Part shown: positions 24,641-49,879 of the stretch, piece after piece
Numbering within the stretch: the first letter of the stretch is position 1
How the letters are laid out: each line of letters begins with the position of its first letter
Assembly (NCBI GenBank): GCA_964019415.1
Contig: OZ025869.1
Coordinates: forward strand, 13,619,955 to 13,683,954
Length of the DNA stretch: 64,000 nucleotides
Origin: Ianthella basta
Lineage: Eukaryota > Porifera > Demospongiae > Verongiida > Ianthellidae
Direction: 5' to 3'
Position numbers and translations under genes: made by a program
Notes under the pieces: model-generated
Told to the model about the DNA's origin: nothing
Database searches by the model: none
What the model saw: the letters and a program-made list of their open reading frames with translations, nothing else

Positions 24641-24706
24641 ATGACATGTACCCCACCAACCTCTCATGCTTGGCGCCCATTCACAAATGCAACATAACAC
24701 AGACAG

Positions 24707-25416
24707 GAGTTCTTGTCTGGAATGAACATTGTACACCGGGACCTGGCCAGCAGGAACATCCTTATGAAAGTTGGCAAGTGCCTGAAGCTGGCTGACTTTG
24801 GCCTCTCTCGGGAAGTGGAAGAACTCTACATCTCCCAATGCTGGGCAGTTGATCTGGCCTACCGCTGGACAGCTCCATACTATGGCTGGGTATCCAATAG
24901 CTAGACTAACAGAGCAGGTGGTGCATGCATAACTCATTTGCAGTATCCACAGATTCACAGATTAAGCACTGCTCCTGTATCAGGTATGAGAGACATTCAC
25001 CTCATTCCCTTCAACAGGTCGTCTACCATACTACCATGTGCGTGGTGACAGGGTCCAAGAGACTGTTTCCTGTGGAGGCAAGCTGCCCCAGCCAGCTGGC
25101 AGCAACCCTGAGCTGTGAGTGGCTGAAAATTCTGTGGTGTCTGATTTCTTTCTGATCTCCAGCCATTGAATATTTAATAATCCTGATGCATGTAAACTTC
25201 AATGGTCATTATAATTATGCTAGACTCATTATATTAAATAATATTATTTCTAACACTGATATTTCGTAATAATTATTACTTACAATAACCATCTATGCAT
25301 CCATCTCAGCTGCTCCTGAGGCCATCCCCCTTGAGGATATGAGTGAACCAGTCACTGAGGTCCTCAAAGCACCCAAGATCAATCAGGAAGGAGCCATTTT
25401 GGACACATTCCTCTAG
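24707..25416 (+). pseudogene. Broken fourth copy of the tandem-kinase receptor (kinase 2 remnant and tail)
   Basis: Three pieces match genes A to C: the kinase 2 exon with HRDLASRN and DFG (from 24707), the GRLPYYHVRG exon (about 25018-25115), and the last tail exon (25310-25416, ending ILDTFL and stop). A deletion joins the first exon, after the RWTAP codons, directly to intron sequence, removing the WSYGVVLWEM exon. Another joins the intron after the GRLPYYHV exon to the intron before the final exon, removing the KCWDM exon and two tail exons. No kinase could result. Flanking sequence to about 25960 follows the normal copies. Confidence 0.88.
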
Positions 25417-28400
25417 AAACCACACACCTTCATCTCTAGTAATCACTATGGACACAGTACGCCCCATTATGCTATTATTGTAAGACCAGCTGACTGTATT
25501 CCCTACAGCCTATACCTTAAGCTTATTGTACCTCACTATAGTCCTTTCTGCTTAACCACAACTGTAACAGTGACAGCATACGAAGGTTAACTGTATTTCC
25601 TTCTCTTATTGCATTATAATCACGCATTGCTGTTAATTAATTCATCATTATCAACAAATTCATTAAACTGGTACACTGAGACTCAGCTGTACCTCAGCTG
25701 CTGTACCTCAATATAAGAGCAGAAGGTATTGTGTTTTGTGGCTCATTTATAACATGCTATAGCTAGCTATGTATATTTATTTTTAACTGCCATGCTCCCC
25801 ATAATTATAGCTATCATAGCTTGCACATAATATGTAGTGGCTGTATGTTGTGGGGTAGATAACTGCTATAATAAGTAGCTATAGGACTGCAGAGCACAGT
25901 AAAGTAGCTATTATGGGCAGTTTCAAAGGATCCACCTGCACTAGTGAGTAATATTAAAGAGGATCGAAGATGAATAGCACAAAATTCCTGCTAAGCTAAA
26001 ATGATATATAGTCATTGTTCTGGAGGGAGCCCACGAGGAAGTCCTGTCCAGCCTTGTGAATCCACATATTGTGAACTGGAGAGAAAAGAGACAAGAGAAC
26101 TGCTCATTCCAGCAGCGCTAGTCTACTGATCATGACTGATGATGCAATGACAAAGTGGGCAGCAGGTCATCTCAACGTCATAGTCATCACATGAAGAGTA
26201 TGCAATGAGATGACGTGTTGACACATGTACACCATGAGACATGAGATGATGTGTTAACAAACACCATATGCATGAGATGACATGTGTTAACACATGCCAT
26301 GAGATGACATGTGTTGACACGCTCCAAGAGATGGCGTATTGACAAACACCATGAGATGAACAAGTTACTTTACAACATATGCTATTAGGGTGAGGGAGAT
26401 GGGTGGGAAGAGAAATTGGAGGGAATGTACACTAGTATTCGTAAAATGTTGCTACACATTACATAGATGATGGGAATGCGTCAGATGAATTATGACACAA
26501 GACATGACAGTGTTTCCTGCAGTCACCTTGTACCTGACACACTTCACAACTCACACTCATTGAGTCACGTACACACAACGTGCCAAGAACAGGATTACCG
26601 GCATTGTGCTTCAGAGGAGAGAAAATTATACATGAAGATGTTGTTTATGCTATAGTGATTAAGGAAATCCTTTCACCACTAATCTGACCTCAATCTCATT
26701 AATAGGACACTGAACAGTGTGTGAATATAGTATATGTTCCCAAACTGAATGTGTGTTGACAATGAGAGTTGGAGAGAAACGAGTTATGTTATGGCACTGT
26801 GATGCGCATTGAATTGGAAGTGGAAAGTCCTTGCTGATGGATATGGGTATATGCTTACAGTGTGCACTCATTGCCACATTCACATACAGTGCATTGAATA
26901 ACTGTGTATCTGCATGTGGGTTTAGTCTTTCTCCTCACAGGAGAATATTCACTCACTATATACAGGACAAATAAACTTTAGGTATTCAAACTACTATAAT
27001 TTTTGCCAGAGCTGTATAGTACAATAGTGTAATTATAATCCCCAAGAACTGTTGGCAAATTTGCTGTACATTTGGTACATACAATGTCACATGTTGGGAT
27101 GTGTCCACACTAGTATAGATAGAAGGTGCACGAATATATATACATAGTGTAGAGGGTATACAGAGTGTGCTGTACATGTACAACTGACACCACTGTGCAC
27201 TGATCTGGAAACAGGTCCCTGTTTCACAGATGTGTTGCTACTGGACAGCAAACTACACAGAGAGTCCACAGTATATAGGTATTGTGTGCAAGAATGAAAT
27301 GACATGACAACTATACAAAATGCGAAAATCAGAGATCCAGCATAACTTCCACATAATTATAATAGTATAATATTCCAAACTCGTGACATGACATGACACT
27401 ATTGACATGACATGTGACAACACACCGCAGAGTGTTACTACAAAATGTAACATGACACAGGACATATCACACCTCCATATATATCAACACAACTAACATA
27501 GTGTGACCTTAGAGGTGAATGCACCTGGTATGACAATGAACATGTCACATGTGATGTGACACCCATGACATTGTGCATTTGAATTAAGGTACAAGTACAC
27601 AAGTATACACAGCTAAACAGCAAACAAACGCGTCCTAAAACGTCCCAACTCTTCGGATCAGCTCACGTACGCATCCATCGGTCTCAGTTCCCTCGTCAGA
27701 GATATCTCCTACATATTACACCAGGTCTGTGTGAACCAGCGCGCTGCCAACGGCTTCGATCCTTGCCGCCATGCAATGTCTCCCAACAGGCAGAAGAACG
27801 CTCCTAGGCGGAACAGCATCTCCATCATTTCGGATACTCGCAAAGGGCCATGGAAGTGCCCGAAATAATGGACGCGCGAACTGAATCTAACTGAGGTCGA
27901 CGAATGTTGCCGTAGGCGCACAGACCGACAAGGAATGCTGCCCTTGGCACACGCAAGTTAACTAACATTGAAGACAGAAGTACTATTCGTTGTGTGTTGA
28001 GCAGAAATTCATAAGCGTTATCCCCATGCAATGATTATCGAATGCACACGCTCGGGATAGCTAGCAACATGAAGTTGTGGGAGCACTGACGTTGGAAGAA
28101 CAGCAGTAAGAAGATATTCCAAGGATAGAGTCACTCATGTCCGTACACGCCACAAGGCTGGATCCTGTAGAGGCGACAGGATGGGATCCGCTGAGTTGGT
28201 TTAAAGTGCTGCAGTGAACTGACACACAGTGAGCTCAAATGCAGTGGACATGACATGGCTGTGAAGTGGGAGGTGCACTGCATGAAGACAGACTGACCAG
28301 GTACATGTACATGTATTAGATGCACACACCGGACCAGTTGTACAGTGTGTACCGTGACTAGTGGTAAAGCTAGTGTCAGTAGATAGCGTAATCAATTGAT

Positions 28401-28925: not shown

Positions 28926-29016
28926 ATGCCAGCTCTCCCAGCTCGGCCTGAAGGAGGAGGCCTCCATCTCCTCCTCCTCCTCCTCCTCTTCAATTCCTCT
29001 GCTGCAGACACACATG
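28926..29016 (+). other. Gene B signal peptide exon
   Basis: ATG opens MPALPARPEGGGLH followed by a run of leucines, then FNSSAADTH and a phase 1 donor gtgagt. This is a classic secretion signal with cleavage expected near the SSAA. The same exon, with a similar coding sequence, starts gene C at 48335, which supports both starts. Confidence 0.85.
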
Positions 29017-29090
29017 GTGAGTGAGTAACTCAGCAGCACTGACAGCAACACCCCAATTAGCTGAGAACTTGGTGATGTTGTGACCTTCTG

Positions 29091-29173
<83 letters not shown>

Positions 29174-32100
29174 TGTGTGTATGTATGTGTGTGGGGGGGA
29201 GTAAGGAACTTGTGTAATTCTCTGTTAGATGCTAGCGCACTTTCCAGTGTTCAACACTGGTAGTGCAACATATGCTAGTCACCTAGACATTACCAAGTGT
29301 AGGTGGGGAATTCTACAGCCAGGAGCAGAGGTTGGATACTCTGATGCTATCACTCAAGGCTGTACCCCTTGCAAGCCCATAGATGAGTATACCCCTAATG
29401 CACAGAGGGGGCCATGCGACTGGGGTGATAAGGCTGGTGTCTCCGCAGCCAACGGTGCCACCAGTCTTGTTGCTACCTGCTGGCGTACCTCATTCATGGG
29501 GTCCACTTAGCCAAGTCTAGGCTGTGGCTATACAATCACAGTTACAAGTACAAGTGTGTGTGCATGTGTGTGTGCTTGTGTGTGTATATATGAGAGAGTT
29601 AGTGTATAAGTGTGAGAACCAGCCAATTATCAAGGATGAGGCAACTGCACCACAATTGATGTACTGTCGTAATTCAAGGTCAGAAACATTACAGAAATGG
29701 TGACCACTCTTGCTTGACATGGAGAGTCATCTGGTGATCATGCAACCCCCCCCCCCCCCCACCCCCCCACACACACAACCCCCTCCCATGGGTTATAATC
29801 AAAAAGCATCCCATAACATGTAACTATGGCAAGAACTGAACACTACACGTGTGCCTTTTTACATGAAACTGCAGCTGGTTACTTTTATTTGCATGGTAGA
29901 TTTTTGTGACACTCAGAAGTTATTAGAATTTAGTTCCTGAATTAATCACCTGCCTTTCCAAAGTGGATGTTGTAAAGCCATATGGTGACACTGCGCAAGG
30001 GCCATCTGTCTTATATACAATTCCTCTCCACTTCAAATCACTTAATCTCCTACTCTTATAATATACTGTAGATCACTATCCCAAAACAGTCTCTCCACTC
30101 CATACCATTGTGAGACCCTCTTCCACAATCATGGTCACCCAATTCTATAATTACCTTTCTCTAAGTCTTATACTTGGATGGTCTCTCGCTGATTATAGTA
30201 GCACTTTCTCATTTCTTGGAAAGTGCTGCATGCCTAGGTGCAGTTCCTTGTATGTCGTTTTAAAGTGTTAAATATACAGGTAAAATGCTGCAATCCTTAT
30301 ACGATTAGCTGTAGCCCCTCCTCCTCACTGACTGAGTGTACATGTGTAACTGGTGGTCTGTGCTGCTGCTGCCCACAGCTCCAGGTGAAGGAGAGGTGCG
30401 ACTGGTGGGAGGGTCTGGCCCACATGAGGGGCGTGTGGAGGTCTACCACAATGGTGCCTGGGGCACTGTGTGTGGTGATTACTGGGATCTGAATGATGCC
30501 ACGGTGGTGTGTCGCCAACTGGGCTATGGCACTGCTGTGGGTGCACTTAGGAGAGCTGCTTTTGGAGAGGGAAATGGTCGTATTTGGTACGATGATGTGC
30601 GCTGCAGTGACCATGAAGCCAACCTCGCTCAGTGTAGCCATAGTGGTCTTGGAGTGCATAACTGTTACCACAGTGAAGATGCAGGAGTGATCTGTGCAAG
30701 TGAGTGAGGTTGCTAGTGGTGTGAGGTGTGTGCTGAGAGGAAGGAAGCAACAGCTATTTACATTATTTATAGTCCTTAAGCTTAATTTCATCAGCTGTGC
30801 GCAAAACTGAGAATTGCACTAAGTGCAGTTTATATAGCTATAAGTGACAGTGAGTGAACAATCAAATCTATAATTATTATGTGTACATGTGTTTAGCCAA
30901 TCAAATTACATATTTATGTATAAGGGGTGTTTACGATTTAAGTGCCTTACAAATAATTGTATATAGCAATGATCGACTTCTATGTTATATAAGTACTCAA
31001 CTTCTCCCTTGCATGTTTGTATTTAAGGTCCATAACTAGCTTTCCACTGTGAACAACCCTTTCTTGTTTCTGGACATTTGTCCATTCCCTATGGTATAGT
31101 ACATACTATTGTGCAGATTTTCATGATCTCAATATAGATGTAGTGCATTTTGCTTGAGTGTGCCTGCTGTCTGTTTGCTGTGTTTGTTACTGACCCAGGT
31201 ATTCGACTGGTGGGAGGGTCTGGTCCACATGAGGGGCGTGTGGAGGTCTACCACAATGGTACCTGGGGCACTGTGTGTGATGATGACTGGGATCTGCAGG
31301 ATGCCACGGTGGTGTGTCGTCAACTGGGCTACATCAATGCAACAGCTGCAGTGGGACCTGCTAGGTTTGGTTCAGGCAGTGGCCCCATCTTTTTCACTGA
31401 AGTGGCCTGTGTCGGCAACGAGAGTACCATCACTGAGTTTGACCATCACAGCACTGGTGGACATAACTGCAGTCACAACCAAGATGTAGGAGTTGTGTGT
31501 GAAGGTACATTAGTCTGCAGTTGCCTATGTGTGTGCATGTAGGTTTGTTAGTGAGGTTGTGAATCTCTATAACTTCACAGTTCTTTGGTTGACCTCCAGT
31601 TCTACATTGGCAAGCATTAATTATCTAGTATCCTATGTACCTCCAATAAGTGTCAGTTGTATACTTAATCCATTTGGCCCTTTTCCATTATAATTGCGCA
31701 GCATGTGCACCATCAATCCCTTCTCCTACTCTTGTGCACTCTCTACCATTCAGTTGCTGTTCGGCTGGCTGGTGGTTCCAGTGAGGCTGAGGGACGAGTG
31801 GAAGTGTACATCAATGGAGAGTGGGGGACAGTTTGTGGTGTCAGTTGGGATCCATTGGATAGCAAAGTTGCTTGTCGTCAGCTCGGTTACAAGGGAGTGA
31901 ACCGTACATATTCTAGCACAAGTCAACACAACTTTGGTGAAGGTACAGGACCGTCCTGGCTGAGGGACCTGCGTTGCACTGGCAGTGAAGCCAACCTTCT
32001 GCAGTGCCCACATGATGGTGTTTTAAATGACTGTCTTCACTCTTATGACGTTGGCGTGGTTTGTACTAACGAAGACTTGCCTGATGAAGGTGAGTAGATG

Positions 32101-35100
32101 AGTCTGTGTTCATGCTTGTCTACATGAGAATGGATGCCGTCAAGTGACAGTGTAGCAAGCATTTCTGTGATTTCACAGTAATGCCTGGTATGTACGTATG
32201 TGTACCTGACCAAGTAACAGTCACATGACAAGAAGCCACACTCAGCATTACATGATTGCCATAGAGCTATATATGATACATTGTGTGGTGTGCATGGGTA
32301 GGTGATTGTGGGAGTTCTCAAACTCATGCTGGCTGTGCATCAACCTCCCCACCATGTTTAGCAATATTGAGACACTGTTTATAGTACTGCATGTGAGAGA
32401 TTTAGTGCATGAGTGTGAGAACCAGCCAATCATCAAGGATGAAGCAACTGTACCACAACTGATGTACTGTCGTAATTCAAGGTCAGAAAAATAACAGAAA
32501 TGATGACCACTCATGCCTGAATTGAATGGTCATCTGGAGATCATGCCCCCACCCCCCAATAAGTAGGTGTAACTCACAAAAGTAGCCCATAACATGTAAT
32601 TATGGCAAGAACTGGACACAGCACATTCCTTTTTATAGTACATGAATCTGCATGCAGCTACATACGTAGCTACTTTTACTTGCCCCTTATATAGTGACCC
32701 TTAGTGGTATACATAGTCCCTTCATCACCTTCACTTTCCAAAGGGATGGTATTCGTAAAGCCAAATGGTGACACTGCAAGGGCACACCTGTCTTATAAAT
32801 TATACACTATTTCCTTTCTATTTCAAATCACATATACATATACTGTAGATCACTATCCCAATGCAGTCACTCCACTCCATACCACTGCATGTGAGACCCT
32901 CTTCCACAATCATGGCCACCCAATTCTAAAACACCTTTCTCTAAGTCTTATACTTGGATGGTCTCTCACTGTCTGATAATAGCAACTAATTATCACTTCT
33001 TAGAAAGTGCTGCATGAATACGCATTGATGTAGTTCTTTGTAAGTCATAATTGAAGTGTAAAATACACAGGACTGGTAAAATGCTGCAATCCCCACCATT
33101 AGCTGTAGCCCCTCCTCCTCACTGACTGAGTGTACATGTGTAACTGGTGGTCTGTGCTGCTGCTGCCCACAGCTCCAGGTGAAGGAGAGGTGCGACTGGT
33201 GGGAGGGTCTGGCCCACATGAGGGGCGTGTGGAGGTCTACCACAATGGTGCCTGGGGCACTGTGTGTGATGATGACTGGGATCTGAATGATGCCACGGTG
33301 GTGTGTCGCCAACTGGGCTATGGCACTGCTGTGGGTGCACTTAGGAGAGCTGCTTTTGGAGAGGGAAATGGTCGTATTTGGTACGATGATGTGCGCTGCA
33401 GTGGCCATGAAGCCAACCTCACTCAGTGTAGCCATAGAGGTCTTAGAGTTCATAACTGTCGCCACAGGCAAGTTGCAGGAGTGATCTGTGCAAGTGAGTG
33501 AGGTTGCTAGTGGTGTGAGGTGTGTGCTGAGAGGAAGGAAGCAACAGCTATTTACGTTATTTATGATCCTTTTAAATGATTCATGACTATGATGCCACTA
33601 ATTTGATGCCCAGAATACACTATTTTAGCAGCTTTAACAGTGCATTTTAAGTGCATGAGTTGCAGATGACGATTAATGTACCATATTTCATGACGCATAG
33701 ACAAATTACGTATATAGAAATGGTTGTCTTCTACGTTATACAATCATACTATGCTCTATATTTGCTTCTCCCTTGCATGTTTGTAAGTTCCATAACTATT
33801 TCTCCACTGTGAACAAACATTTGTCCATTCCCTACAGCATTACTATTGTGCAGATTTTCATGATCTCAATATAGATGTAGTCCGCAGTGACAGTATGGGT
33901 GGATGTGAGTGTGCCCGCTGTCTGTTTGCTGTGTTTGTTACTGACCCAGGTATACGACTGTTGGGAGGGTCTGGTCCACATGAGGGGCGTGTGGAGGTTT
34001 ACCACAATGGTACCTGGGGCTCTGTGTGCGATGATGACTGGGATCTGCAAGATGCCACGGTGCTATGTCGTCAACTGGGCTACTTCAATGCAACAGCTGC
34101 AGTGGGACCTGCTAGGTTTGGTTCAGGCAGTGGCCCCATCTTGTTCAGTGAAGTGGCTTGTGTTAGCAACGAGAGTACCATCACTGAATGTGACCATCAC
34201 AGCACTGGTGGACATAACTGCAGTCACAACCAAGATGTAGGAGTTGTGTGTGAAGGTCAGTTAGTCTGCAGCTGTGTGTGTATGAGTGCCTATATGTGTG
34301 TGCATGTAGGTGTTTCTGTTTGTGAGGTTGTGTGTCTGTATAACTTCACAGTTCTTTGGTCGACCTCCAGTTCTACATTGGCGAGCATTAATTGTCTAGT
34401 ATCCTACATACTCCAATAAGTGTCAGTTGTATATTTAATCCATATTTGGCTCTTTTCCATTTCTAAGTAAGCAGTATGTGCACCATCAATCACTTCTCCT
34501 ACTCTTGTAAACTCTCTACCTTCCAGTTGCTGTTCGGCTGGCTAATGGGTCCAGTGAGGCTGAGGGACGTGTGGAGATGTACATCAATGGAGAGTGGGGG
34601 ACTGTTTGTGGTATCAGTTGGGATCCATTGGATGGCAAAGTTGTTTGTCGTCAGCTCGGTTACAAGGGAGTGAACCGTACATATTCTCACACAGGTCAAC
34701 ACAACTTTGGTGAAGGTACAGGACCGTCCTGGCTGAGGGGCCCGCTTTGCACTGGCAGTGAAGCCAACCTTCTGCAGTGCCCACATGATGGTGTTGGAGA
34801 TGGCTGTAGGTGTGCTGGATGGAAGTGCCTGTACTTACTACTGGTACATGATGGCGTTTTAAATGGCTGTGCTCACTCTCATGATGTCGGTGTAGTTTGT
34901 ACTAATGCAAGCTTGCCTGATGAAGGTGAGTAGATGTGTCTGCATTCATGCTTGTCTACATGAGAATGGGTGCAGTCAAGTGACAATGTAGCAAGCATTT
35001 CTGTGATTTCACAGAAACGTCTGGTATGTATATGTGTGTGTAGGTCACTGAGGAATCTGTCATTTGGTAGGAGTAGAATGACATTGTTATCTACTATTGG

Positions 35101-36591
35101 TACACTAGTATTTTAGAGTGAACAAGTCTCCATGCATTCTGTCTCATACTATGCACTGATTCTGTATGTTTTTGTGCTTGATTGTTTCATATACTGCTGG
35201 GAGGATCGCCTAGAAAGTCTCCATGTCAGTGTTGGGTGTGGGGCAAGGTATTCTTAGGGAACTGCACTCATCCAGCGTCCTTCTGCCAATGAGTGTGCTT
35301 CCCTTTTGTCTCAGTGGGCTAAGACACCATTTTAATGACATCACATGGCATCATTGTGGCATTCCATTCCGGCCACCCTAAGAATGTGATATCATGCACA
35401 TCCTATTGGCTACTTTGTTTTCACAACACCTACATGCAGAAAGCCTGTTACTGTACGTGCTTCCATGAATTCTAAGTATGCACCATTAAACTGAACATTT
35501 GCTCACGAAGTTCTGTGCATCCAGCATCAATCATGACACACCCTACTAGCAACAACAAGCCAGAATCACATACTGTACAAGATGTTGTGCCCTACAACCT
35601 GGCCTGTATACACTGTTGCACAACACCAGGGCATTGGCAGGCTGGTGTCAACCCTTTAATTACCATCAGGGTGTGCTGGAGCAGAGAAGCCCAACAGAGA
35701 CTACTAGGGATGTAAATTCATCAAAATGGCTATTATCCATCTTGCTTTCACTCAAAGCAAAATGATTGCCCAGCCAGCTATTAGAATGAACTGCTCATGT
35801 GTGCGTTGTTTGGTGTACAGTATATACATGTGTGTCAGTTGTAACGTGTGTTGTGATATAGAGGATGAAGGTGATATAAAGGATGAAGAGTGTGTAACAT
35901 GTTAATCGGCATGGCAGAGTGATTTCTGATTCACTTTGTTACTGTGTCAGTAAACAGTGCTATTCCTAGGTTCCCTCCACAGCTATTAGCTATGCCAAAG
36001 AGAAGTTACGTAGAATGTATAGAGAATACAAGATAATTATGTCTCCTGAGTTTTGCTAAGCAATGGATCAGCCTAACCACTACGTATATATATAAAAATA
36101 TGCCTTGAAACTGGGTTAGAGCATGATTGCCATAGAGCTATGATACATTGTCTGGTGTGGGTAGGTAATTGTGGGATCGAGTTTCTAAACTCATGCTGGC
36201 TGTACATCGGCTTCCTCACCATGTTTAGCAATATGCACTGTCTCTCCTGTGTGTGTGCAGGTGACATCCGGTTGGTTGGTGGCTCTGTCCCTTCAGAAGG
36301 GAGGGTGGAGCTGTTCTATGAAGGAGAGTGGGGGAGAGTGCTTGTTAACTCAGACATTGCACCAGCACCAGCAGCAGCAGCTCGTGTTGCATGTCAACAG
36401 GCGGGGTACCCCTACAGTGATGGTACTGGGGACTTTGGACAGGGGAGTGGGCCAGTCTTGGTAGTCATCCAGTCATGTACTGGAGATGAAGAGAGAATTG
36501 AGCAATGCGACCACTGGGGTTGGAGGGACAGCTGTCTTTATTACTGTTCTGGCTTCGGTGTCAGATGTAGAGGTGAGTGTATGCAAAGTAT

Positions 36592-36658
<67 letters not shown>

Positions 36659-37580
36659 ACACGGGGCAAACATTCTCCTTATTAAGACCAAGGTACAAAA
36701 ATAAGGAAAATGGAGTCACTGAGTATAACAGTAATTGCCAACATGCTGCAGGACGCATGGCACAATGTATAACTGTTGGTGACTCTGTAGGTTTGGAAGT
36801 GATGTGTGTGCATATGGTATGATGTGTATGCATATGGGTGTGTATGCATATGGGTGTGTATGCGTATGGGTGTGTATGCATATGGGTGTGTATGCGTATG
36901 GGTGTGTATACATATGGGTGTGTATGCATATGGGTGTGTATGCATGTATGTGAGTTGTGTATAGGGTATAGTGTGTGCATAGGAATATGAAGTGATGTGT
37001 GCGCATTGCTGTCAGGCTAGCCAGAAGTCTCTTGGTCTTGCGCTGCTGCTCCTTCTTGAGTGGACACCAGTTGATCCTCTGTGCTGTTGTGGCAGGGACT
37101 TCTGAATCGGTTCCATCTTACCAAGCTGGATGGCAGTGCTGCTTGGCTCTGTTCTCGATCCACTTCTGCTGCCACGTAGTAGCAGGAGGCCGTTGGGGAT
37201 TGTTCCCTCCTCTGCCCGCTAGCCGTTGGGGAGATTCGTCCCTCATCCGCCCATCGGAGTCCTGCCCACCCCGAGTCAGGCCTTAGGTCTCCTGACAGAC
37301 CGGTGTGTTGTGATTGTCTCCCCTTCCAGTAGTCGCCGAGGATGCATCTGTCTGCTTCCCTAGGTTTGCAGTCGATGGTCAAAGTTCACACCTCTGTCAG
37401 CCTCACGCTGCCTAACTCTCTCTTTGCGGAAGCTCCGAAGTCCGAGTCCATTACTGTTTTGGGGACTGTTCTGTCCTTCAGGCACAGGCTTGGCGTCATT
37501 CGGGTGCAAACGTGTAGTGAAATATACCGCCTTCTACAACTCGGTTCCTCGCGGTCGCCATTTCGACGGATGACGTCACA

Positions 37581-37633
<53 letters not shown>

Positions 37634-40600
37634 ACAGTGTATCAAGGTGTCTTGACATGTTGAGAGCACCTCAGATTGTCACACCATCTCCTCTGCCATC
37701 TCACAGGTGTGAAGAAAGGTCCATTTAATGTGTCCATTGAAGCCACCCCATTCTCAGTCCACATTGAGTGGATTGAAGCATCTGACAACATTACATTTGT
37801 CATTGGCTACAATATCACTGTGAGAACTCTGGTAACCAAGGCAACCAGGACAGTGTATGTTGAGGGCAGCTCTCATGAGGCCAATGTGACTGGTCTCATT
37901 CCCTTCACGGAGTACTCCTTCACTGTCAAGGCAGAGTACAAGTATGGACCAGGGCCACCGAGTGAGGCTGTGGTTCAGAGGACCAGGGAACATGGCAAGT
38001 GACCGACTTCCCCATTTGGGGATTCATGTCGTGTGCATGTGTGTAGCTCTTCCGTATGGCACACATGCACTTCTATAATGTGTATAAAATAGTCTGTGCA
38101 ATGTCGAGAGTTGCTGATGTCCTTTCTCCCTTCAGTGCCAAGCCCACCTCCAGCCCTGTTAGCAGTGGATACAGACTCCTCAACAGTGTCTCTCGTCTGG
38201 TCTCCTCCAAGGGAGCCAAATGGAATCCTTCTGTTCTATCGAGTGGTGGCCAGACAACTGGGGAGCAACAGAGGAGAGATTGTTGTCAGCATAGCAGCTA
38301 ATATGCAAACATCTGACATGGTCGAGTTACCTGTCAACAATAGTGACTTGTTGATGGCCAACACAGCTGAAGACTTGCCAACAGCAAATGACTTTGTAGC
38401 CTTCACTCTAACTGGATTGTCACCACACACTGAGTATGTCATCACTGTTCAAGCCAACACCAGTGCTGGGTATGGAAACAGGAGTAAAGAGCTGCACATT
38501 CAAACAGATGCAGGTGTGTGTGGTGGGGGGGGGGGGGGGGGGGGGGGAGGGGGAATATGTACTTGCTCACGATTATGTGAACTATCCGCTTGTGTTTGAG
38601 TGCCACCTCCTCCTCCCCATTCCTCCATTAGCTCCAACTACTGAAAGTAACTTAGTCACTATTGTGGTCACTGCCATTGTCAGCATCATCTTGACTGCTG
38701 GACTAATGGCCATAATAGTTCCACTGGTATGGACAGCATTGCTATGTTACAAGTGGAGAAAGACATCCACTGCCCCTGTGGGTGGGACCCAGGACAGAGG
38801 TAAGTCCTATCATTACTCACCATCCCACAGTGGTCCACACTGCATGCTCACTAGCTGGAGTGCGCTCTGGTGAACTCTTACAGATTCAAGAAGAGACATT
38901 TCGTGTTGTGACTTACAAACTACACTGAATCAACTAGTACTATGACATCCTACTTGTGCCCATCTTCAATCCAGTAGTACAGTATTATATCATTTCTGCT
39001 ATTATTGTCTGAAATATTTGCCTATTCTCAGTATAGGTAATATCGTATAATAGTACAGGTCTTACAGATCAAGACAGATATAATTATGGTTGTCTCTGTC
39101 AGCACTATAGTATTAGCATGAAGTGAGGGTTTCTCAGCTCACTTACAAGAAGGAATGAGATCGAAGTTCACCCTGAAGAAGACCAGAGCATCTGGTCAAA
39201 ATGGCAGCTAGGCTCAAACCCTGTTGGTTTAAGCTGGTTTTTGGATAACAATAGCCCTTTCTCATTATATTATATTAGCAACCTGGGATGTTTATTTACT
39301 GAATACACCAATTGTACTGCTGACTGTTTACTCTTTGTGTGCTATTCCTCTTGCTATAGCAGACAGTCCAGCTCCAGCTGTTATTGCAACTATCAATGAC
39401 GAAACACACCAGAGAGCCAAAACACCAGTTAGTTGCTTCTCTCTGCATTTGTTTTTGTTATAATGCTGTCTTATTGTATGTGGGCAAATTGGGTGAACGC
39501 ACACACTTAGCTGCATTGTCCACACTGCATGGTACAGTGTCTAGTACTTTAAATTTATACAACAGGAGGTGACTATACAGTCATACTGACTGACACCAGA
39601 AATCTTTAGACACTAGGTTGATTGTATACTGACTATTGATCACTGCTTTTAGCCAAAGTGCATGTGGATGTGCAAGTCCACTACTATTGTCAGGATTGTG
39701 TTAGAATGTTCCAATCTAAGGTACTCCAGAAGTAGGCATTGGGATAGAGTCCTGCTGTATAATCATTACAATATAGCTCTAGTCGTAACTCTTAAGCTAT
39801 TCCTCACTTCTCTCCCCCCCCCCCCCCCCCCCTCCATGCAGACACAGGTGAAGCAGGTAGCAGGTGTGGATATCACAGAGTGGAAGATGAGCTATGATGA
39901 CATGGAGCTGAAGAATCAAGTGGGCAATGGGCAGTTTGGTGCGGTGGTGCTGGCCCAGCTAAACAGAGAGGCCACATCACCCACTGTCACTCAGTACATA
40001 CAGAAACAGGAGACTCCCAAGGGCTTCCCTCCTACCCTGCTGGTGGCTGTGAAACGCTACAATGGTGAGTGTGCATGGGATAAATGCAGCTATGGGGCTG
40101 ATGTTTCGAACACCTACAGTATGCCATTTATTGGTAGAATATCATGCAGGAGTATAGAGCCATAATCAGTTGTCACTGTGAGAATAATAATTTGCATCAT
40201 TTTTCTGTCAGTATGAAACAAATGATTCACCTTTCCTTAGATAGTACATTTTTCTAGTTTCCAATTTGTTACTAGTCACTGTATCTTGCTATGAGCTCTA
40301 TTTCCACCCTACCTCCCAGCTGAGAGGATGCATCTGGAGATGGACTACTATTACAACGAGGTTGCCATCATGATCAAAGCATCCACAGAAGGCCACCGCA
40401 ATGTCATCACCTTGGTGGGTTGCATCCCTGAGCTGCCCTATCCTGCTATCATCATGGAGTATGCTCCACTGGGCAATCTTCATGACTTCCTTTTGAAGTA
40501 CAAGAATCAGGTGAGGGTCTAGCATGCTAGGACAATAGGCTTTGACATCCAATTGCAGGTCACTAGCTCTGTTCACTCCCTTGGTCATGCAGCGTCTCCC

Positions 40601-43600
40601 TGCCATGGTCTCTGGCACTGTGATCATGGCCCCTGTCAGTGATGTTGCTCCAGAGTTCCAGAGCTACTACAACACACTGACCCTGAAGCCTCAGGATGTC
40701 CTCCTCTTTGCAGCCCAGATTGTCTCAGGGATGGTGAGCACAGAGACCACCTCAAAGTGCATGTTTGATACATTGTGTCACAGGTCTCTTCCACCTCTCC
40801 AGGAGTTCTTGGCTAGCCTGAACATCATCCACAGAGACCTTGCCTGCAGGAACATCTTGATTGCCCACGACAAAGTGCTGAAGCTAGCTGACTTTGGCCT
40901 CTCTCGTGAGGTGGAGGATATGTATGTCTCTAAGACAGCTTGCAACCTCCCTGTGCGATGGATGGCTCCAGAGGCAGTGGTGTCAAAAATCTACACTGAG
41001 AAGTCAGATGTGTGAGTCAAGTACACTCTGCCTTTTTTGTTATAGTGCGCAATTCTTGCCAATGAAACAACTTCCTGGCACTTTGGATGTGTGTAGAGAT
41101 TGTCTTCTGTTCTGCCTTCTCCTTTTTAGGTGGTCCTTTGGAGTTGTTCTGTGGGAGATCTGCACTCTTGGTTAGTGTGGTAGAATCCAACGAAAGTGAT
41201 TGTTGACCTGTAGAATACAACTTAATTTACATGTAAATAGGGGTAACTTTATCTACTACATGAATTGCTCTTCTCCCAACAGGCCGGCTGCCCTACCACA
41301 ATTTGGGCAATTCGGAAGCCATGAAGACCATTTGTGATGGTATCAAACTGACAAAACCAGATGGCTGCAGCCTTGAGCTGTGAGACTTCAAGCTATACGT
41401 GGCTGTCCTGCACACTCCAGTGCTGTCCATGTACTTCTCTTTTGTTCACAGGTACAATGTCATGCTAACCAAGTGCTGGGACATGAGCGCAGACACCAGG
41501 GCAACCTTCTCTCAGCTCAAAAGTACCCTGGAAGATCTCATGGTCACAAATGAGGAGAACCCACCTGTGGACCTGGACTATGAGCTGCAGCAGCAGGCCA
41601 GAGGTGAGCAGCAGCACACTGGGTGGTCCTGCATTTAGTGGTTGTTGGAATAGACATGCTTGTTTATGCTTGTGTACCTAAGCTTATCACCACAACAAGA
41701 TTACATCTTACAGCATGGCACTGTTTACATCTTTCTCCTCCCTTTGCACTTCTGTTTACCCGGTGCTGCAGAGATGTGTCGTTCTGACCTACCCACTTGG
41801 GACAGTACTCTGCACTCCCCAGATGCAGCCTGCAGAGGTAGCGACTCTACAGTACCGGCAACCCTCACCTGCTGGTCTGATCCGGATCCACAGACCACAG
41901 ATGAAGTGTCCCAAGGTAAACTAGCTACCATCAAGTCCCAACCTGCCTGAAACTGAACCTCATCTCTTCTACATATCTCAAATACCACCTCTCCTTCTGA
42001 TGCCACATATAGAGTTCTGCATGCATATATGCTCTACTCTGTATCTTCATTTTCAGAGATCACCTCTGGTGCAGCCACCATACAGGACCCCCAGCTTGGT
42101 GCCTCTGCTGCTCTAGGTGGCAATGAAGGAATAGCACCGTACAGTTGCATAACTTTGGCCGAGGTGCACCCACAAGCTCCGCCCACCTCAGAGGACCCAC
42201 ACACTCCTTCAGTTCCCCACCTGGCTCCACCCAACCTAGTGGTGGACCTACCCAGTGAGCGTCCTGAGACACCTCCACTGCTACCTCCACCTCGTGGCAG
42301 AGGGCTAGCCAAAGGGGACTCGTGGGAGATGAGTTACGCTAATTTGTGCCTTGGACAAGGCCTGGGGTGGGGCAACTCTGGGATAGTGGTGAAGGCTGAA
42401 CTGGCCACTGATGTAGACAACCAAGAGTTTATTAACCGATTGGCCAGATTGGAGAAGAACGAAGGAGATGACAGTGACCAATGGACAGTGGCAGTAAAAC
42501 GCATAAGAGGTGAGTTCATATATTGCTAGACTTCTTCAGTAGTGCACATTATGTGGTCGTCATTATATTGAACTACAGGTATTCTTTGTGGCTGTAAATA
42601 AAGTATAGAGCGAGACCTTCCACTGCATGCATTGCAACATTTCCTTTACCATTTCACTGTCCTATATACACTCCTTCAAACTCTCATCCATCCCTCCCAG
42701 TATCACCATCAATGAAGGAGATGCAGACCTTCTACAATGAGGTTGAAATACTAAAGAAGCTATCAATGCTCTGCAACCCACATGTCATCACAATGGTGGG
42801 CTACATTGCTCGAGAGAACCCACCAGCAATTGTCATGGAGTTTGCTCCACTTGGCAGCCTCCGTGACTTCCTTGTGAAAGTTAAGAATGAGGTGAGGTTG
42901 TCTGTGTCATTAACACAGACTATATATGTGTCTTGTGTGAGATCTGGCCATGGGCGGGAACATGGCAGCTTCCTATTCAGAGCATGCATGTTTATCCCAT
43001 GGCCAATATTATACAGTGCAGCCTTTTGACCATTAATCATTTTCACTGCATTTTGTGTTCTGGCCTGAACAATTTAAGCTAAAATGTTGCTTCTTTGCTT
43101 AACTAGCTGTCCACTCTGGTCCTCCTATTTATGCAGCGTGTTGCTGTGCTGCACCCTCGTGGTGTGGTGATGCCCCCTCCTATTCAAGTCCCAAAAGAAC
43201 TGAGGAGCTACTACGCCAGCCTCACACTAGAGCCTAGTGACATCCTCTCATTTGCCTACCAGATTGCCTCTGGAATGGTGAGCAGAGACTGTGTCATTGT
43301 TGTTTATGGCATTTTATCTGTTACTACTCCATGCACTCCTTAGGAGTTCTTGTCTGGAATGAACATTGTACACCGGGACTTGGCCAGCAGGAACATCCTT
43401 ATGAAAGTTGGCAAGTGCCTGAAGCTGGCTGACTTTGGCCTCTCTCGGGAAGTGGAGGAACTCTACATCTCCCAATGCTGGGCAGTTGATCTGCCCTACC
43501 GCTGGATGGCTCCAGAGGCACTGACCAACCAACTGTATTCAGAGAAGTCTGACGTGTGAGTCATGCAGAATACACAGCATGCACGGTGCATGTGTGGTGT

Positions 43601-45237
43601 TGTTTGCAGAAAGTATAATCATTATGATGAACTTATGTCTCTACTCAACAGATGGTCATATGGAGTTGTTCTTTGGGAGATGTGTTCCCTGGGTCAGTGC
43701 TTGGGGACATATGTACTATGGCTGGGTATCCAATAGCTAGACTAACAGAGCAGGTGGTGCATGCACATAACGTGTTTGCAGTATTCCACACAGATTCACA
43801 GATTAAGCACTGCTCCTGTATCAGGTATGAGAAGCATTCATCTCATTCCCTTCAACAGGTCGTCTACCATACTACCATGTGCGTGGTGACAGGGTCCAAG
43901 AGACTGTTTCCTGTGGAGGCAAGCTGCCCCAGCCAGCTGGCAGCAACCCTGAGCTGTGAGTGGCTGGAATAGTTACCATTGCTGCATGCTTTAAACTTCA
44001 TTTCATCTCTCCATGCCTGTCTGCCATAGGTACAGTGTGATGATGGACATGTGCTGGGACATGGACCCTGACAAGAGAGCAACCTTCACTCAGCTAAAGA
44101 AGACCATAGTTTCTCTTCAGTCTGCATCCCTGGAACAGGAGAGTCCTTTCATGGACCTGGACTTCATAGTTCAGGAACAATTGCGAGGTGAGCTGTCATG
44201 TGAGATACGTACGTAGCGCTACATTGCCCTACACTCGAGTTGGTGTGTGCTTGTTTCTGTACTCTAATCTAACATTCCACATTACTCTCTATTACACACA
44301 CACTATCTCTCTCTCTTTTACTCTCATTTGCTCTCTGGCTCTTTCATTTCATCCAGAGGACTGCTCCATTGTTCTGCCCCTTGCACCTGAGTCTGTCCAC
44401 CCACCTACTGCTGCTGTTGAAGAGAGCACATGTATTGCTACAGGCAACTCTCCAGCCATTGAACAATGTGAATGTGAGTATAGTGGACAGCCTCAGCCGT
44501 ATTACAGTGATGGAAGCAATTCAGTGCATGCATTATACAACAGTATTCAGAATATGTGGCACTGATGCTGTGCAAGCTGCACACATACAGGTGGTGCTTC
44601 TGTTAGTGCATTGCAATAGATGTGTGTTCATTGTATGTTGAAGGCTTTATTTATTCATTTTTGCCCGCAGTCACTGCTTCAGTGCCAGTTGACCCCACCT
44701 CTAGCAATGACCCCAAGCCTACTACTGAAGGGGCCTGCTCTCTACCAGTGGCTAGTCAGAGGGATGGAGGTGAGCACGTTAGGCATACTGTCTATCTCAA
44801 TGTGGTCTCATGGTGGTACATATGTTTGAACAAAGAATACTATTGGTAGCTACAGCCTTATTTCATGTTAAGGTTCAGGACGTGCTCGCTAGTGTAGACT
44901 GCTGCAATCGGTCACACAATCAAAGGATTTCATGCCTAATTGCTAACATTTCTGAAATTCTGTGGTGTTTAATTTCTTACTGATCTCCAGCCATTGAGTA
45001 TTAAAATTTTGCAGCATGTAAATTGCAATGGTCATTATAATAATATGTTTGCCTCAAATTATATTAAATATTTTCAACACTGATATTTTATAATTATTAA
45101 TTACGATAACTATCAATCCATCCATTCCAGCTGCTCCTGAGGCCATCCCTCTTGAGGAAATGAGTGAACCAGTCACTGAAGTCCTCAAACCCTCCAAGAC
45201 CAATCAGGAAGGAGTCATTTTGGACACACCTCTCTAG
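28926..45237 (+). CDS. Receptor tyrosine kinase B: signal peptide, 7 SRCR, 2 FN3, TM, two kinases
   Basis: The complete member of the array. Exons: 28926-29016, 30379-30699, 31199-31504, 31754-32089, 33173-33493, 33950-34255, 34527-34925, 36261-36572, 37707-37994, 38136-38513, 38632-38799, 39360-39427, 39842-40064, 40320-40510, 40593-40733, 40803-41011, 41130-41170, 41283-41379, 41452-41603, 41772-41915, 42057-42509, 42701-42891, 43137-43277, 43344-43555, 43652-43692, 43859-43955, 44030-44187, 44357-44473, 44671-44769, 45131-45237. These 30 exons phase without error into 6108 bases, 2035 residues. Layout: signal peptide 1-30, SRCR 31-797, FN3 798-1019, TM in 1020-1075, kinase 1 to about 1449, linker, kinase 2 from about 1600 to 1928, tail to 2035. 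It probably acts as a plasma-membrane receptor. All ectodomain exons are phase 1, which permits exon shuffling. The ligand is unknown and there is no transcript evidence here. Confidence 0.9.
29094..29193. repeat. (GT)n microsatellite in gene B intron 1
   Basis: About 100 bases of GT repeat with a few interruptions near the right end. It lies between the signal peptide exon and the first SRCR exon. Confidence 0.95.
30379..32089 (+). other. Gene B SRCR domains 1-3
   Basis: Each domain is one phase 1 exon: 30379-30699, 31199-31504, 31754-32089. Each shows the SRCR pattern: VRLVGGSGPHEGRVEVYHNG, WGTVC, WDL or WDP, VVCRQLGY or VACRQLGY, a G-x-G-P or G-x-G segment, and a final GV(I/V)C. Six cysteines per domain suggests the group A type. 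Domain 3 has a longer end (TNEDLPDEG). Confidence 0.9.
33173..34925 (+). other. Gene B SRCR domains 4-6
   Basis: Exons 33173-33493, 33950-34255 and 34527-34925, all phase 1, duplicate domains 1-3. Domain 6 carries a 63-base in-frame insertion (34796-34858) next to a repeat of gatggtgtt or gatggcgtt; it adds 21 residues with three cysteines and a short LYLLLV run. The insertion should extend a loop near the end of the fold. Confidence 0.85.
36261..36572 (+). other. Gene B SRCR domain 7 (divergent)
   Basis: Opens GDIRLVGGSVPSEGRVELFYEGEWG and ends FGVRCRG. In place of WGTVC it has WGRVLV, and the middle contains an alanine-rich APAPAAAARVAC. The cysteine pattern differs from domains 1-6. It is orthologous in position to the only SRCR exon of gene A in this window. 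Confidence 0.85.
36597..36654. repeat. (CA)n microsatellite after SRCR 7 exon
   Basis: A pure CA run directly after the SRCR 7 donor. The open frames reading Thr-His or Val-Cys repeats across it are artefacts. Confidence 0.95.
36806..36950. repeat. 16-base minisatellite in gene B intron
   Basis: About eight units of the form gtgtgtatgcatatgg, with small changes such as cgtatg or catatg. It lies within the intron between SRCR 7 and FN3 1. Confidence 0.85.
37000..37576 (-). other. GC-rich insert in gene B intron, unclassified
   Basis: This block has much higher GC and CpG content than the rest and is absent from the short equivalent intron of gene A (1422-1558). Its right end reads, on the minus strand, GT repeat, then tgacgtcatc (a CRE-like palindrome) and an ATG in cgaaATGGCGAC; that frame stops after 17 codons. 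A similar arrangement occurs in gene C near 49785. It could be a transposable element or promoter-bearing insert; no family is recognised. Confidence 0.4.
37577..37636. repeat. (CA)n microsatellite beside the GC-rich insert
   Basis: A CA run with one CT interruption joins the GC-rich insert to ordinary intron that matches gene A. Confidence 0.92.
37707..38513 (+). other. Gene B FN3 domains 1 and 2
   Basis: Exons 37707-37994 and 38136-38513, both phase 1 and multiples of three. Motifs are IEW, GYNITV and FTEYSFTV in the first, LVWSPP, LLFYRVV and LSPHTEYVITV in the second. The donor after 37994 is gcaagt (GC-AG intron), as in gene A. The intron after 38513 begins with a long G run. Confidence 0.87.
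38632..39427 (+). other. Gene B transmembrane and juxtamembrane exons
   Basis: Exon 38632-38799 codes for LVTIVVTAIVSIILTAGL and further hydrophobic residues, ending with the basic YKWRK. Exon 39360-39427 adds the juxtamembrane segment with NDETHQRAKTP. Confidence 0.85.
39842..41603 (+). other. Gene B tyrosine kinase domain 1
   Basis: Glycine loop GNGQFGAV, VAVKRY, YYYNEVAIM, HRDLACRN, LADFGLSREVE, WMAPEA, WSFGVVLWEI and KCWDM are all present over exons of 223, 191, 141, 209, 41, 97 and 152 bases. The acceptor of the first exon has an unusual tract of about 19 C residues just before it. The fourth exon and the intron before it match gene C almost perfectly. Confidence 0.9.
41772..44187 (+). 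other. Gene B linker and tyrosine kinase domain 2
   Basis: The linker (41772-41915 and the first part of 42057-42509) is proline-rich with the conserved APYSCITL tyrosine. Kinase 2 has LGWGNSGIVV, VAVKRI, FYNEVEIL, HRDLASRN, LADFGLSREVE, WMAPEAL, WSYGVVLWEM and CWDMDPDKRATF. Nothing catalytic is missing. The C-lobe has MDMCWDM where genes A and C have MDKCWDM. Confidence 0.9.
44357..45237 (+). other. Gene B cytoplasmic tail exons
   Basis: Exons 44357-44473, 44671-44769 and 45131-45237. The tail has no tyrosine and ends VILDTPL before TAG, a T-x-L end like the other copies. Confidence 0.8.
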
Positions 45238-48334: not shown

Positions 48335-48437
48335 ATGCCAGCTCTCCAAGCCTGGCCTGCAGGAGGAGGTCTACTCTTCCTCCTCCTCCTCCTCCTTCTC
48401 TTCCTTCTCTTCCACTCCTCTGGTGCAGATACACTTG
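48335..48437 (+). other. Gene C signal peptide exon
   Basis: ATG at 48335 opens MPALQAWPAGGG, then a leucine and phenylalanine run and HSSGADTL with donor gtgagc in phase 1. It matches the gene B exon at 28926. An upstream in-frame TTG gives a longer open frame but the ATG is conserved in B. Confidence 0.82.
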
Positions 48438-49783
48438 GTGAGCGCCCCGTAAATGTGACAGTTGAGGTTATTAATTATGCTAATTACGTCTTACATTTGG
48501 CTAATACCTAGATTAGCCATTTAGTAAACAACTCTCAGCTGTCTCCATACCAAGCCATGGGAAAAGTGTCGTGTTTTCGGAGGGGACACAGATTGCACAA
48601 GACTATGAGAATTACAGTGAGCTTATCCTCTTGTGTATTAAATGAGGTGCAGAACAGGCCCATAGGCAGCTCCAAGACTGGGTGGGTGGGGTTCTTCTGC
48701 TCTCAAAGTGGAACTCATCATATAGATTAACATTTGGCACAATTCTAGTGTCCGTAAGAAGAATGTCCAGCTTGTACTCTCTAGCTGCAGCTAAGCTTGT
48801 CTTTTTAAGCTTAACAGGGTTTTGAGTGGCACTGTCCACTGTAAGACTACTGTATAGTAGTACAACTCAGATTCTGTAATGTTATAGAAGTAGCTTCTCA
48901 GGTGATCGTACCTCCTAGGCAAGTGGGGGGTCTTTTGAACCCCCCAAACCACTTGCGTACGAGCCTGCAACAGAAGTTGGGGTAGCCAGCGCTTCCGCTC
49001 CTGAGGACTTGTTCTCATTCACTGAATCAGATCATCAATTGGCTTGTTTTACATTATTATATGATACTTGAATTTAGTAGTATAAATTATGATAGCATCG
49101 AATAACATGACAATATACTGCCTCAGCAACTTAGCTACTATCGTGACAGAGAAATGAACTATCAATCAGCTCTAATTGCCAAGCTGGACTGCTCATGTGT
49201 GTGTTGTTTGGTGTACATATATGTCAACTGTACCTCATGGGGTACAGTTTTATGGGCTTAAGTAAGACTAGAATACTAGGAGGAACTTGTCAAAGTACAT
49301 ACACATGCACGCACACACACACACTTCTTCTTCTTCTTCTGTACACCTTGTCCTCGCGGACGTACGGCAGGTCCAGGCCAAAGGCCTGGAACCTGTTTAC
49401 AGCCAGTCAAAGTCTTCCGTAGGTGAGGTGGCAAGCCTCACGCCAGACTTTACCCTGGACTTGAGGGCTGCTGGGTGCCTAGCCGTTGATGACCGTAGAT
49501 GGCCTCCCGTTCCTCAGCCGACTCAGGCCCAGGGGGTGCGGTGGAAGATGGTTGACGGCCGAAGACCACGGTACGTGGTTCGCTGGACTTACGACGGTCG
49601 ATCTCTGCTTGCAACGCGAGTGGCGCTTTTTGCTGACGAGAAGCCATGACGCGCACACGTCCACTCCATTAGGCGTCATGGATACCGTGCAGCAGAAGCT
49701 GATGAGCCAACTCCGTGCGAAAGAGCGAGATTCTCAGGCCCCTCCGCGACCGCGTGGTCTCCGAGCCGCCATTTTCGATGACG

Positions 49784-49879
<96 letters not shown>

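What the first reader, a model, noticed from the sequence alone, without database searches (positions are those of the whole stretch)
28926..45237. Receptor tyrosine kinase with two apparently active kinase domains in tandem
Seen: one frame joins signal peptide, 7 SRCR, 2 FN3, one TM, kinase 1, linker and kinase 2. Both kinases keep the VAVK lysine, the helix C glutamate, HRDLA(C/S)RN, DFG and APE. Known: animal receptor tyrosine kinases normally have one kinase domain; JAKs have two, but one is a pseudokinase and they are not transmembrane. Inference: the receptor could phosphorylate itself between domains or signal with two specificities. This is the best candidate for an undescribed system here.
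Basis: partly seen in the sequence, partly recalled or inferred. Interest (0 to 1): 0.85.

Follow-up and report, generated by a model that had tools for sequence, protein, structure and literature searches.

The report
Receptor with two tandem tyrosine kinases
A probable sponge gene encodes a cell-surface receptor whose inner part carries two intact tyrosine kinase domains in a row instead of one, much like a rearrangement known from human tumours but here kept by natural selection; whether the joined message is really made still needs RNA.

Summary
Confirmed: at 28926-45237 (+) a 30-exon model reads 2,034 codons without a stop: signal peptide, 7 SRCR, 2 FN3, one TM, kinase 1 (K1), linker, kinase 2 (K2), tail. 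Both kinases keep their catalytic motifs. K1 and K2 are 49% identical with matching exons and phases: an internal duplication. The window holds two further copies, which the finding does not mention (A, cut by the window edge; C, with a stop in K2 and no ectodomain exons found). Across copies the frame is kept through K1-linker-K2 while introns drift; dN/dS is 0.27-0.36 (K1), 0.19-0.42 (linker), 0.06-0.13 (K2), 0.7-0.9 (tail). Ninety linker codons without Met (B, C; one Met in A) precede K2, so one transcript is strongly favoured, though no RNA was available. Among 309 listed relatives none has two kinases of this family; the nearest is a single-kinase SRCR receptor. Unrelated TM-kinase-kinase predictions exist in Corticium, Oscarella and Ptychodera, and tumours carry the same layout (EGFR-KDD). 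Most likely a natural kinase-domain duplication in an SRCR receptor, K1 and K2 activating each other within one chain (inferred). New variant of a known kind.

The parts
28926..29016 (+). exon 1, signal peptide
   Evidence: ATG, Leu-rich stretch, GT donor, phase 1; signal peptide judged by eye only
30379..36572 (+). exons 2-8: seven SRCR domains, one per phase-1 exon (30379-30699, 31199-31504, 31754-32089, 33173-33493, 33950-34255, 34527-34925, 36261-36572)
   Evidence: PF00530, 7 stretches; model
37707..38513 (+). exons 9-10: two fibronectin III domains
   Evidence: PF00041, 2 stretches
38632..38799 (+). exon 11: transmembrane segment
   Evidence: hydrophobic segment at aa 1030, mean hydropathy 2.73
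39363..39427 (+). exon 12: juxtamembrane
   Evidence: model; found in A and C
39842..41603 (+). exons 13-19: kinase 1
   Evidence: PF07714 4.1e-73; motifs; dN/dS 0.27-0.36
41772..42316 (+). linker: exon 20 and the 5' part of exon 21, proline-rich, no Met in copies B and C before K2
   Evidence: same exon lengths in three copies; pn/ps 0.08-0.43
42317..44187 (+). 3' part of exon 21 to exon 27: kinase 2
   Evidence: PF07714 3e-70; motifs; dN/dS 0.06-0.13
44357..45237 (+). exons 28-30: C-terminal tail without tyrosines, to the stop
   Evidence: dN/dS 0.69-0.91, not significantly under 1
1122..8633 (+). copy A: one SRCR, 2 FN3, TM, K1, linker, K2, tail, open throughout; further 5' exons presumably lie before the window
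48335..56682 (+). copy C: signal peptide exon, TM, K1, linker, K2, tail; no SRCR or FN3 exon like copy B's found by blastn; TAA at 54978 in K2 (exon 24)
24704..25428 (+). remnant: parts of exons 24, 26 and 30 of a further copy

Best explanation
It is one gene for a single-pass receptor tyrosine kinase of an SRCR-receptor family in which the intracellular block (kinase, probably with the first tail exon) was duplicated in tandem. Shown by sequence: gene model, domain order, intact catalytic motifs, purifying selection on K1, linker and K2, and the order of events (kinase duplication first, gene copies later). Inferred: the SRCR ectodomain binds a microbial or self surface ligand; because two kinases share one chain they can pair within it, K1 mainly as activator and K2 as the main catalytic unit, and ligand-driven clustering adds contacts between chains. 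Output would go through the YY pair kept in each kinase insert and the one linker tyrosine, as the tail has none.
For: Open 30-exon chain. K1-K2 49% identity over 342 aa, with exons 14-19 and 22-27 matching in order, phase and nearly in length. Three copies: of exons 12-30, 2 of 19 differ in length, each by 6 nt; of introns 13-29, 16 of 17 differ, 15 by a non-multiple of 3. dN/dS K1 0.27-0.36, linker 0.19-0.42, K2 0.06-0.13; Fisher p (rounded counts) under 1e-4 for K1 and under 1e-7 for K2 in all three pairs. 90 codons of exon 21 before its first Met in copy B, pn/ps 0.27-0.43. Introns 19 and 20, between K1 and K2, are 168 and 141 bp. Tree of 38 kinases: K1s together (100/99), K2s together (100/99), sisters (100/98), P0124 next (99/99). 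K1-K2 dS 1.28 against 0.09-0.18 for K1 and K2 between copies. Precedent: in EGFR-KDD, kinase-dead TKD1 still supports growth and kinase-dead TKD2 does not (PMC7925532, passages); here K2 is the more constrained domain, K1 versus K2 p 0.07 (A-B), 0.0006 (A-C), 0.03 (B-C).
Against: No RNA or protein evidence. The three pairs of copies are not independent, and some linker tests are not significant (exon 20 A-C p 0.21; exon 21 A-C p 0.08). Copy A has one Met inside the 90 linker codons. Copy C has a stop in K2 and no ectodomain exons found; copy A's 5' end is outside the window. AATAAA lies in intron 21 in A and B, and the weaker AGTAAA in exon 21 of all three, so a short isoform is possible. K2 has Ser for the Gly-loop Phe. 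After one two-copy EGFR chain, the best solved structures are FGFR1 (K1) and RET (K2), so the asymmetric EGFR dimer may not apply. Ligand and pathway are unknown.
Confidence: 0.6

Rival explanations
1. Two adjacent genes: an SRCR receptor ending after K1 and a separate kinase gene for K2.
For: In copies B and C, reading on past the exon 20 donor meets a stop after 11 codons; AATAAA lies in intron 21 in A and B, AGTAAA in exon 21 of all three.
Against: The same read-on has no stop within the stretch printed for copy A; splice sites of introns 19, 20 and 21 are kept in all three copies; exon 21 is constrained for 90 codons before its first Met in copy B (copy A has one Met there); introns of 141-168 bp leave little room for a 3' end plus a promoter; K2 alone would lack signal peptide and TM.
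Confidence: 0.07
2. One gene, both forms made: a full dual-kinase receptor and a shorter receptor ending after K1 through intron retention or early polyadenylation.
For: Stop in retained intron 20 (B, C); AATAAA in intron 21 (A, B); AGTAAA in exon 21 (A, B, C).
Against: Neither the stop nor the AATAAA is present in all three copies, and AGTAAA is a weak signal within coding sequence.
Confidence: 0.2
3. The two kinases act on different substrates rather than on each other; the duplication broadened output.
For: K1 and K2 differ at about half of their residues, including the activation loop and the residue before RWMAPE.
Against: No direct test; the stronger constraint on K2 also fits an activator/catalyst split.
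Confidence: 0.25
4. K1 is becoming a regulatory pseudokinase, as in JAKs.
For: dN/dS of K1 is two to five times that of K2.
Against: The catalytic motifs of K1 are intact in the three copies and K1 is still under clear purifying selection.
Confidence: 0.1

Closest known systems
P0124, unnamed JGI metagenome protein: 4 SRCR, TM, one tyrosine kinase
   Same: SRCR ectodomain, TM-like segment, kinase of the same clade (43% to K1, 37% to K2)
   Different: one kinase, no fn3 match; host unknown
[quoted passage not shown]
   Same: TM receptor with two intact kinases in tandem made by in-frame exon duplication (PMC7925532 and PMC5817791, passages)
   Different: somatic, recent copies, oncogenic, EGFR-type kinase; here in the genome assembly, 49% identical, three gene copies
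Corticium candelabrum LOC134191860 (P0009) and Oscarella lobularis P0218
   Same: predicted TM-kinase-kinase, both kinases with VAIK/VAVK, HRD and DFG; K1s and K2s pair across the two genera
   Different: different kinase clade, no SRCR match, kinases about 20 aa apart; independent origin
Ptychodera flava P0231
   Same: predicted cadherin-TM-kinase-kinase, both competent by motif
   Different: another kinase clade and ectodomain; its K1 and K2 are each other's closest in the tree
JAK kinases
   Same: two kinase domains in one chain
   Different: cytoplasmic FERM-SH2 proteins with a first-domain pseudokinase (recalled family knowledge)
SRCR receptor tyrosine kinases of Oscarella (P0020, P0024, P0026, P0043)
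   Same: SRCR plus tyrosine kinase in one predicted protein
   Different: one kinase; different clade for the two placed in the tree (P0020, P0024)

Membership tests
Receptor tyrosine kinase | signal peptide, ectodomain, single TM, intracellular tyrosine kinase | tested here: met
   signal peptide by eye, TM by hydropathy
Receptor tyrosine kinase | tyrosine kinase activity | not testable with these tools
   motifs only
SRCR superfamily | SRCR domains with conserved cysteines | tested here: met
   7 PF00530 stretches; 6 Cys in five domains, 5 in SRCR2, 9 in SRCR6 with an insert
Kinase-domain-duplication receptor | two homologous kinase domains from tandem duplication of the same exons | tested here: met
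   49% identity, matching exon order and phases; sisters in tree
Kinase-domain-duplication receptor | ligand-independent intramolecular activation | not testable with these tools
   inferred from EGFR-KDD only
JAK | FERM and SH2 domains | tested here: not met
   none in the Pfam scan of the model (exon 20 and the tail, exons 28-30, were not scanned)
JAK | first kinase a pseudokinase | tested here: not met
   K1 keeps VAVK, HRD, DFG
FGFR / RET family | kinase grouping with FGFR or RET in a tree | tested here: inconclusive
   best solved structures are FGFR1 (K1) and RET (K2) after an EGFR chain, but the tree leaves the family apart from both, among unresolved forks

The most novel reading that the evidence does not exclude
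Animals have repeatedly fixed receptors that carry a built-in kinase pair in one chain (here, in homoscleromorph sponges and in a hemichordate), so that a single receptor molecule can be switched on without dimerising with a second one: a physiological, regulated form of what tumours do by kinase-domain duplication. In this family the pair works under a fast-changing SRCR recognition head.
Probability: 0.4. Interest if true: 0.78.

Novelty: new variant of a known kind. Interest (0 to 1): 0.6.

Why it matters
Receptor tyrosine kinases are generally thought to need two chains to bring two kinases together. A receptor that carries two intact kinases and keeps both under selection offers a natural test of whether one chain can suffice, and how an organism keeps such a receptor quiet when the tumour version is active without ligand. 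It also suggests looking for more such receptors, since unrelated ones turn up among predictions from other animals.

Tried and rejected
Chance frame joining: rejected, since the other two frames hold 74 and 150 stops and the frame is conserved between copies. Assembly artefact of K1/K2: rejected, as they are 49% identical. Amphimedon P0219 as a dual-kinase SRCR receptor: on reading its sequence, its kinases are separated by SRCR, Frizzled-type and TM-like stretches, so it looks like neighbouring genes fused in a model. P0004, P0008, P0012, P0267, P0277, P0289, P0299, P0303, P0304 and P0307 have a TM-like stretch between kinases and were set aside. JAK membership rejected (membership test).

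Literature: ten searches showed me no paper on a natural dual-kinase receptor of this kind. I saw the listings only, which are capped (for example 40 of 82 papers and 40 of 59), of open-licence PMC papers; six papers were seen in passages, none whole: PMC8662651, PMC4177888, PMC7925532, PMC5817791, PMC10855680, PMC8242945. The founding choanoflagellate and Amphimedon kinome papers were not seen.

The structure tool was not used: its stated rule admits window proteins read letter for letter from the DNA, which I took to leave out a spliced protein, so I did not send it.

Full report
The observation. The chain from 28926 to 45237 on the + strand was rebuilt exon by exon. It has 30 exons, 6,105 coding bases, and reads 2,034 amino acids to a stop without an internal stop. 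Of 70 donors checked over the three copies 68 are GT and 2 GC (exon 9 of A and B); the acceptors checked are AG (exon 11 of copy A was placed separately in the same call). Pfam gives seven SRCR stretches, two fn3 and a full tyrosine kinase in each half of the inner part (exon 20 and the tail were not scanned). There is one strongly hydrophobic segment between FN3 and K1. Each kinase keeps the Gly-loop, VAVK, helix C Glu, HRDLA(C/S)RN, DFG and APE; K2 has Ser in place of the Gly-loop Phe.

Internal duplication. K1 and K2 align over 342 residues at 49% identity, and the exons match in order and phase (exons 14-19 and 22-27: 191/191, 141/141, 209/212, 41/41, 97/97, 152/158 bases). The exon after each kinase begins with similar residues (E-M-C and E-D-C), so the duplicated unit probably included it. 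K1-K2 divergence at silent sites is 1.28, near saturation.

Three copies. A search of the window with K1 and K2 showed two more pairs in the same orientation. Copy A runs from an SRCR exon at 1122 to the stop at 8633 and is open; further 5' exons presumably lie before the window. Copy C has a signal peptide exon at 48335, then a TM exon at 50032, K1 and K2; no exon like copy B's SRCR or FN3 exons was found by blastn in the 1.6 kb between, and there is a TAA at 54978 in K2. A remnant with parts of exons 24, 26 and 30 lies at 24704-25428. Within copy B, SRCR exons 2-4 and 5-7 look like a tandem duplication (longest matching blocks 82% and 86% in DNA).

Is it one gene? Of exons 12-30, 2 of 19 differ in length among the three copies, by 6 bases each; of introns 13-29, 16 of 17 differ, 15 by a number not divisible by three. 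Nei-Gojobori dN/dS for A-B, A-C and B-C: K1 0.27, 0.31, 0.36; linker 0.28, 0.42, 0.19; K2 0.12, 0.06, 0.13; tail 0.91, 0.78, 0.69. By Fisher tests on rounded counts K1 and K2 lie below 1 with p under 1e-4 and 1e-7 in all three pairs; the linker with p 0.002, 0.049 and 0.0002; the tail does not (p 0.54, 0.48, 0.38). Exon 21 has 90 codons before its first Met in copies B and C (copy A has one Met inside), with pn/ps 0.38, 0.43, 0.27 and p 0.04, 0.08, 0.004; exon 20 gives 0.18, 0.41, 0.08 and p 0.02, 0.21, 0.01. Constrained coding sequence without a start is best explained by translation from upstream exons, so K2 most likely belongs to the K1 transcript. Pairs of copies are not independent, and no RNA was seen. 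AATAAA occurs in intron 21 of A and B but not C, AGTAAA in exon 21 of all three, and a stop in retained intron 20 of B and C but not in the stretch printed for A, so a shorter isoform cannot be excluded.

Relatives. Three protein searches scored 7981, 7981 and 7978 candidates (those sharing most words); 758, 2729 and 878 passed the thresholds and the best 120 of each were listed. I examined the 309 distinct listed proteins, not the rest. None of them has two kinases of this family. The nearest is P0124, a metagenome protein with four SRCR, a TM-like stretch and one kinase. In a tree of 38 kinases the K1s, the K2s, and K1 with K2 are each supported, with P0124 next to them. So the kinase pair arose after the split from P0124 and before the gene copies. 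Of the 309, 24 show a TM-like stretch before the first of two or more kinases; 14 of these have none between the kinases. Six of the 14 have lysine, HRD and DFG in both kinases, putting and, for P0218, the sequence together: P0009 (Corticium), P0218 (Oscarella), P0231 (Ptychodera), P0282 (Balamuthia, its kinases far apart) and the unnamed P0039 and P0078. The hydropathy threshold is crude and some JAK rows pass it falsely. Corticium and Oscarella K1s pair, as do their K2s, so that receptor predates the split of the two genera, and it is not of this family. All of these are gene predictions or assembled transcripts that I did not check further.

How it may work. In EGFR-KDD the first kinase activates the second within one chain, ligand adds contacts between chains, and kinase-dead TKD1 but not kinase-dead TKD2 still supports growth (PMC7925532, passages). 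A survey cited in PMC5817791 (passages) lists such duplications in FGFR, RET, PDGFR and other kinases. The best solved-structure match for both kinases is 9p9u, an EGFR chain in which each query matches twice; that it is a KDD construct is my inference, and its rank owes something to the two matches. Here K2 is the more constrained domain (p 0.07, 0.0006, 0.03), which fits K2 as the catalytic and K1 as the activating partner; this is inference, and the next matches are FGFR1 for K1 and RET for K2. The tail has no tyrosine and evolves nearly freely, the linker has one (IAPYSCIT), and both kinase inserts keep a YY pair, so docking through inserts is my guess. The head differs between copies (seven SRCR in B, none found in C), in line with the tandem SRCR arrays with changing domain number described for Amphimedon (PMC10855680, passages; that text does not mention kinases). 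A role in recognising microbes or self is inference.

Identity of the host. Many of the nearest kinases are from sponges, so a sponge is likely, but I did not establish it.

Verdict. The feature is real and the dual-kinase receptor is the best reading. It is a new variant of receptor tyrosine kinases: the layout is known from tumours and is seen, without a description that my searches showed, in a few other animal gene predictions.

Noticed in passing
1122-8633 and 48335-56682: Two more copies of the same dual-kinase receptor gene; no SRCR/FN3 exon was found in C, which carries a stop in K2.
   Followed up: yes
24704-25428: Remnant with parts of exons 24, 26 and 30 of a further copy; 120 bases around exon 26 are identical to copy B.
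   Followed up: partly
30379-32089 and 33173-34925: SRCR exons 2-4 and 5-7 of the finding's gene look like a tandem duplication; SRCR6 has an in-frame insert of about 21 residues and SRCR2 has five cysteines, not six.
   Followed up: partly
19819-21178 (-): Another protein kinase gene on the other strand between copies A and B (Pfam 9e-27 on one ORF; 2e-4, under the curated cut-off, on a second).
   Followed up: no
60036-60827: ELO family (fatty acid elongase) gene downstream of the array (8e-48).
   Followed up: no
P0009 and P0218: A different dual-kinase receptor, by prediction, shared by Corticium and Oscarella.
   Followed up: partly
P0125, P0128, P0132-P0135, P0138, P0181: Proteins with two tyrosine kinases and no TM called, from EukProt, MMETSP and metagenome sources; in P0125, P0134 and P0181 both domains keep the motifs, in P0132, P0133, P0135 and P0138 the first domain has an altered HRD or DFG.
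   Followed up: no
45220-45237: The protein ends in DTPL (B, C) or DTLL (A), which resembles a class I PDZ ligand (recalled, not tested).
   Followed up: no
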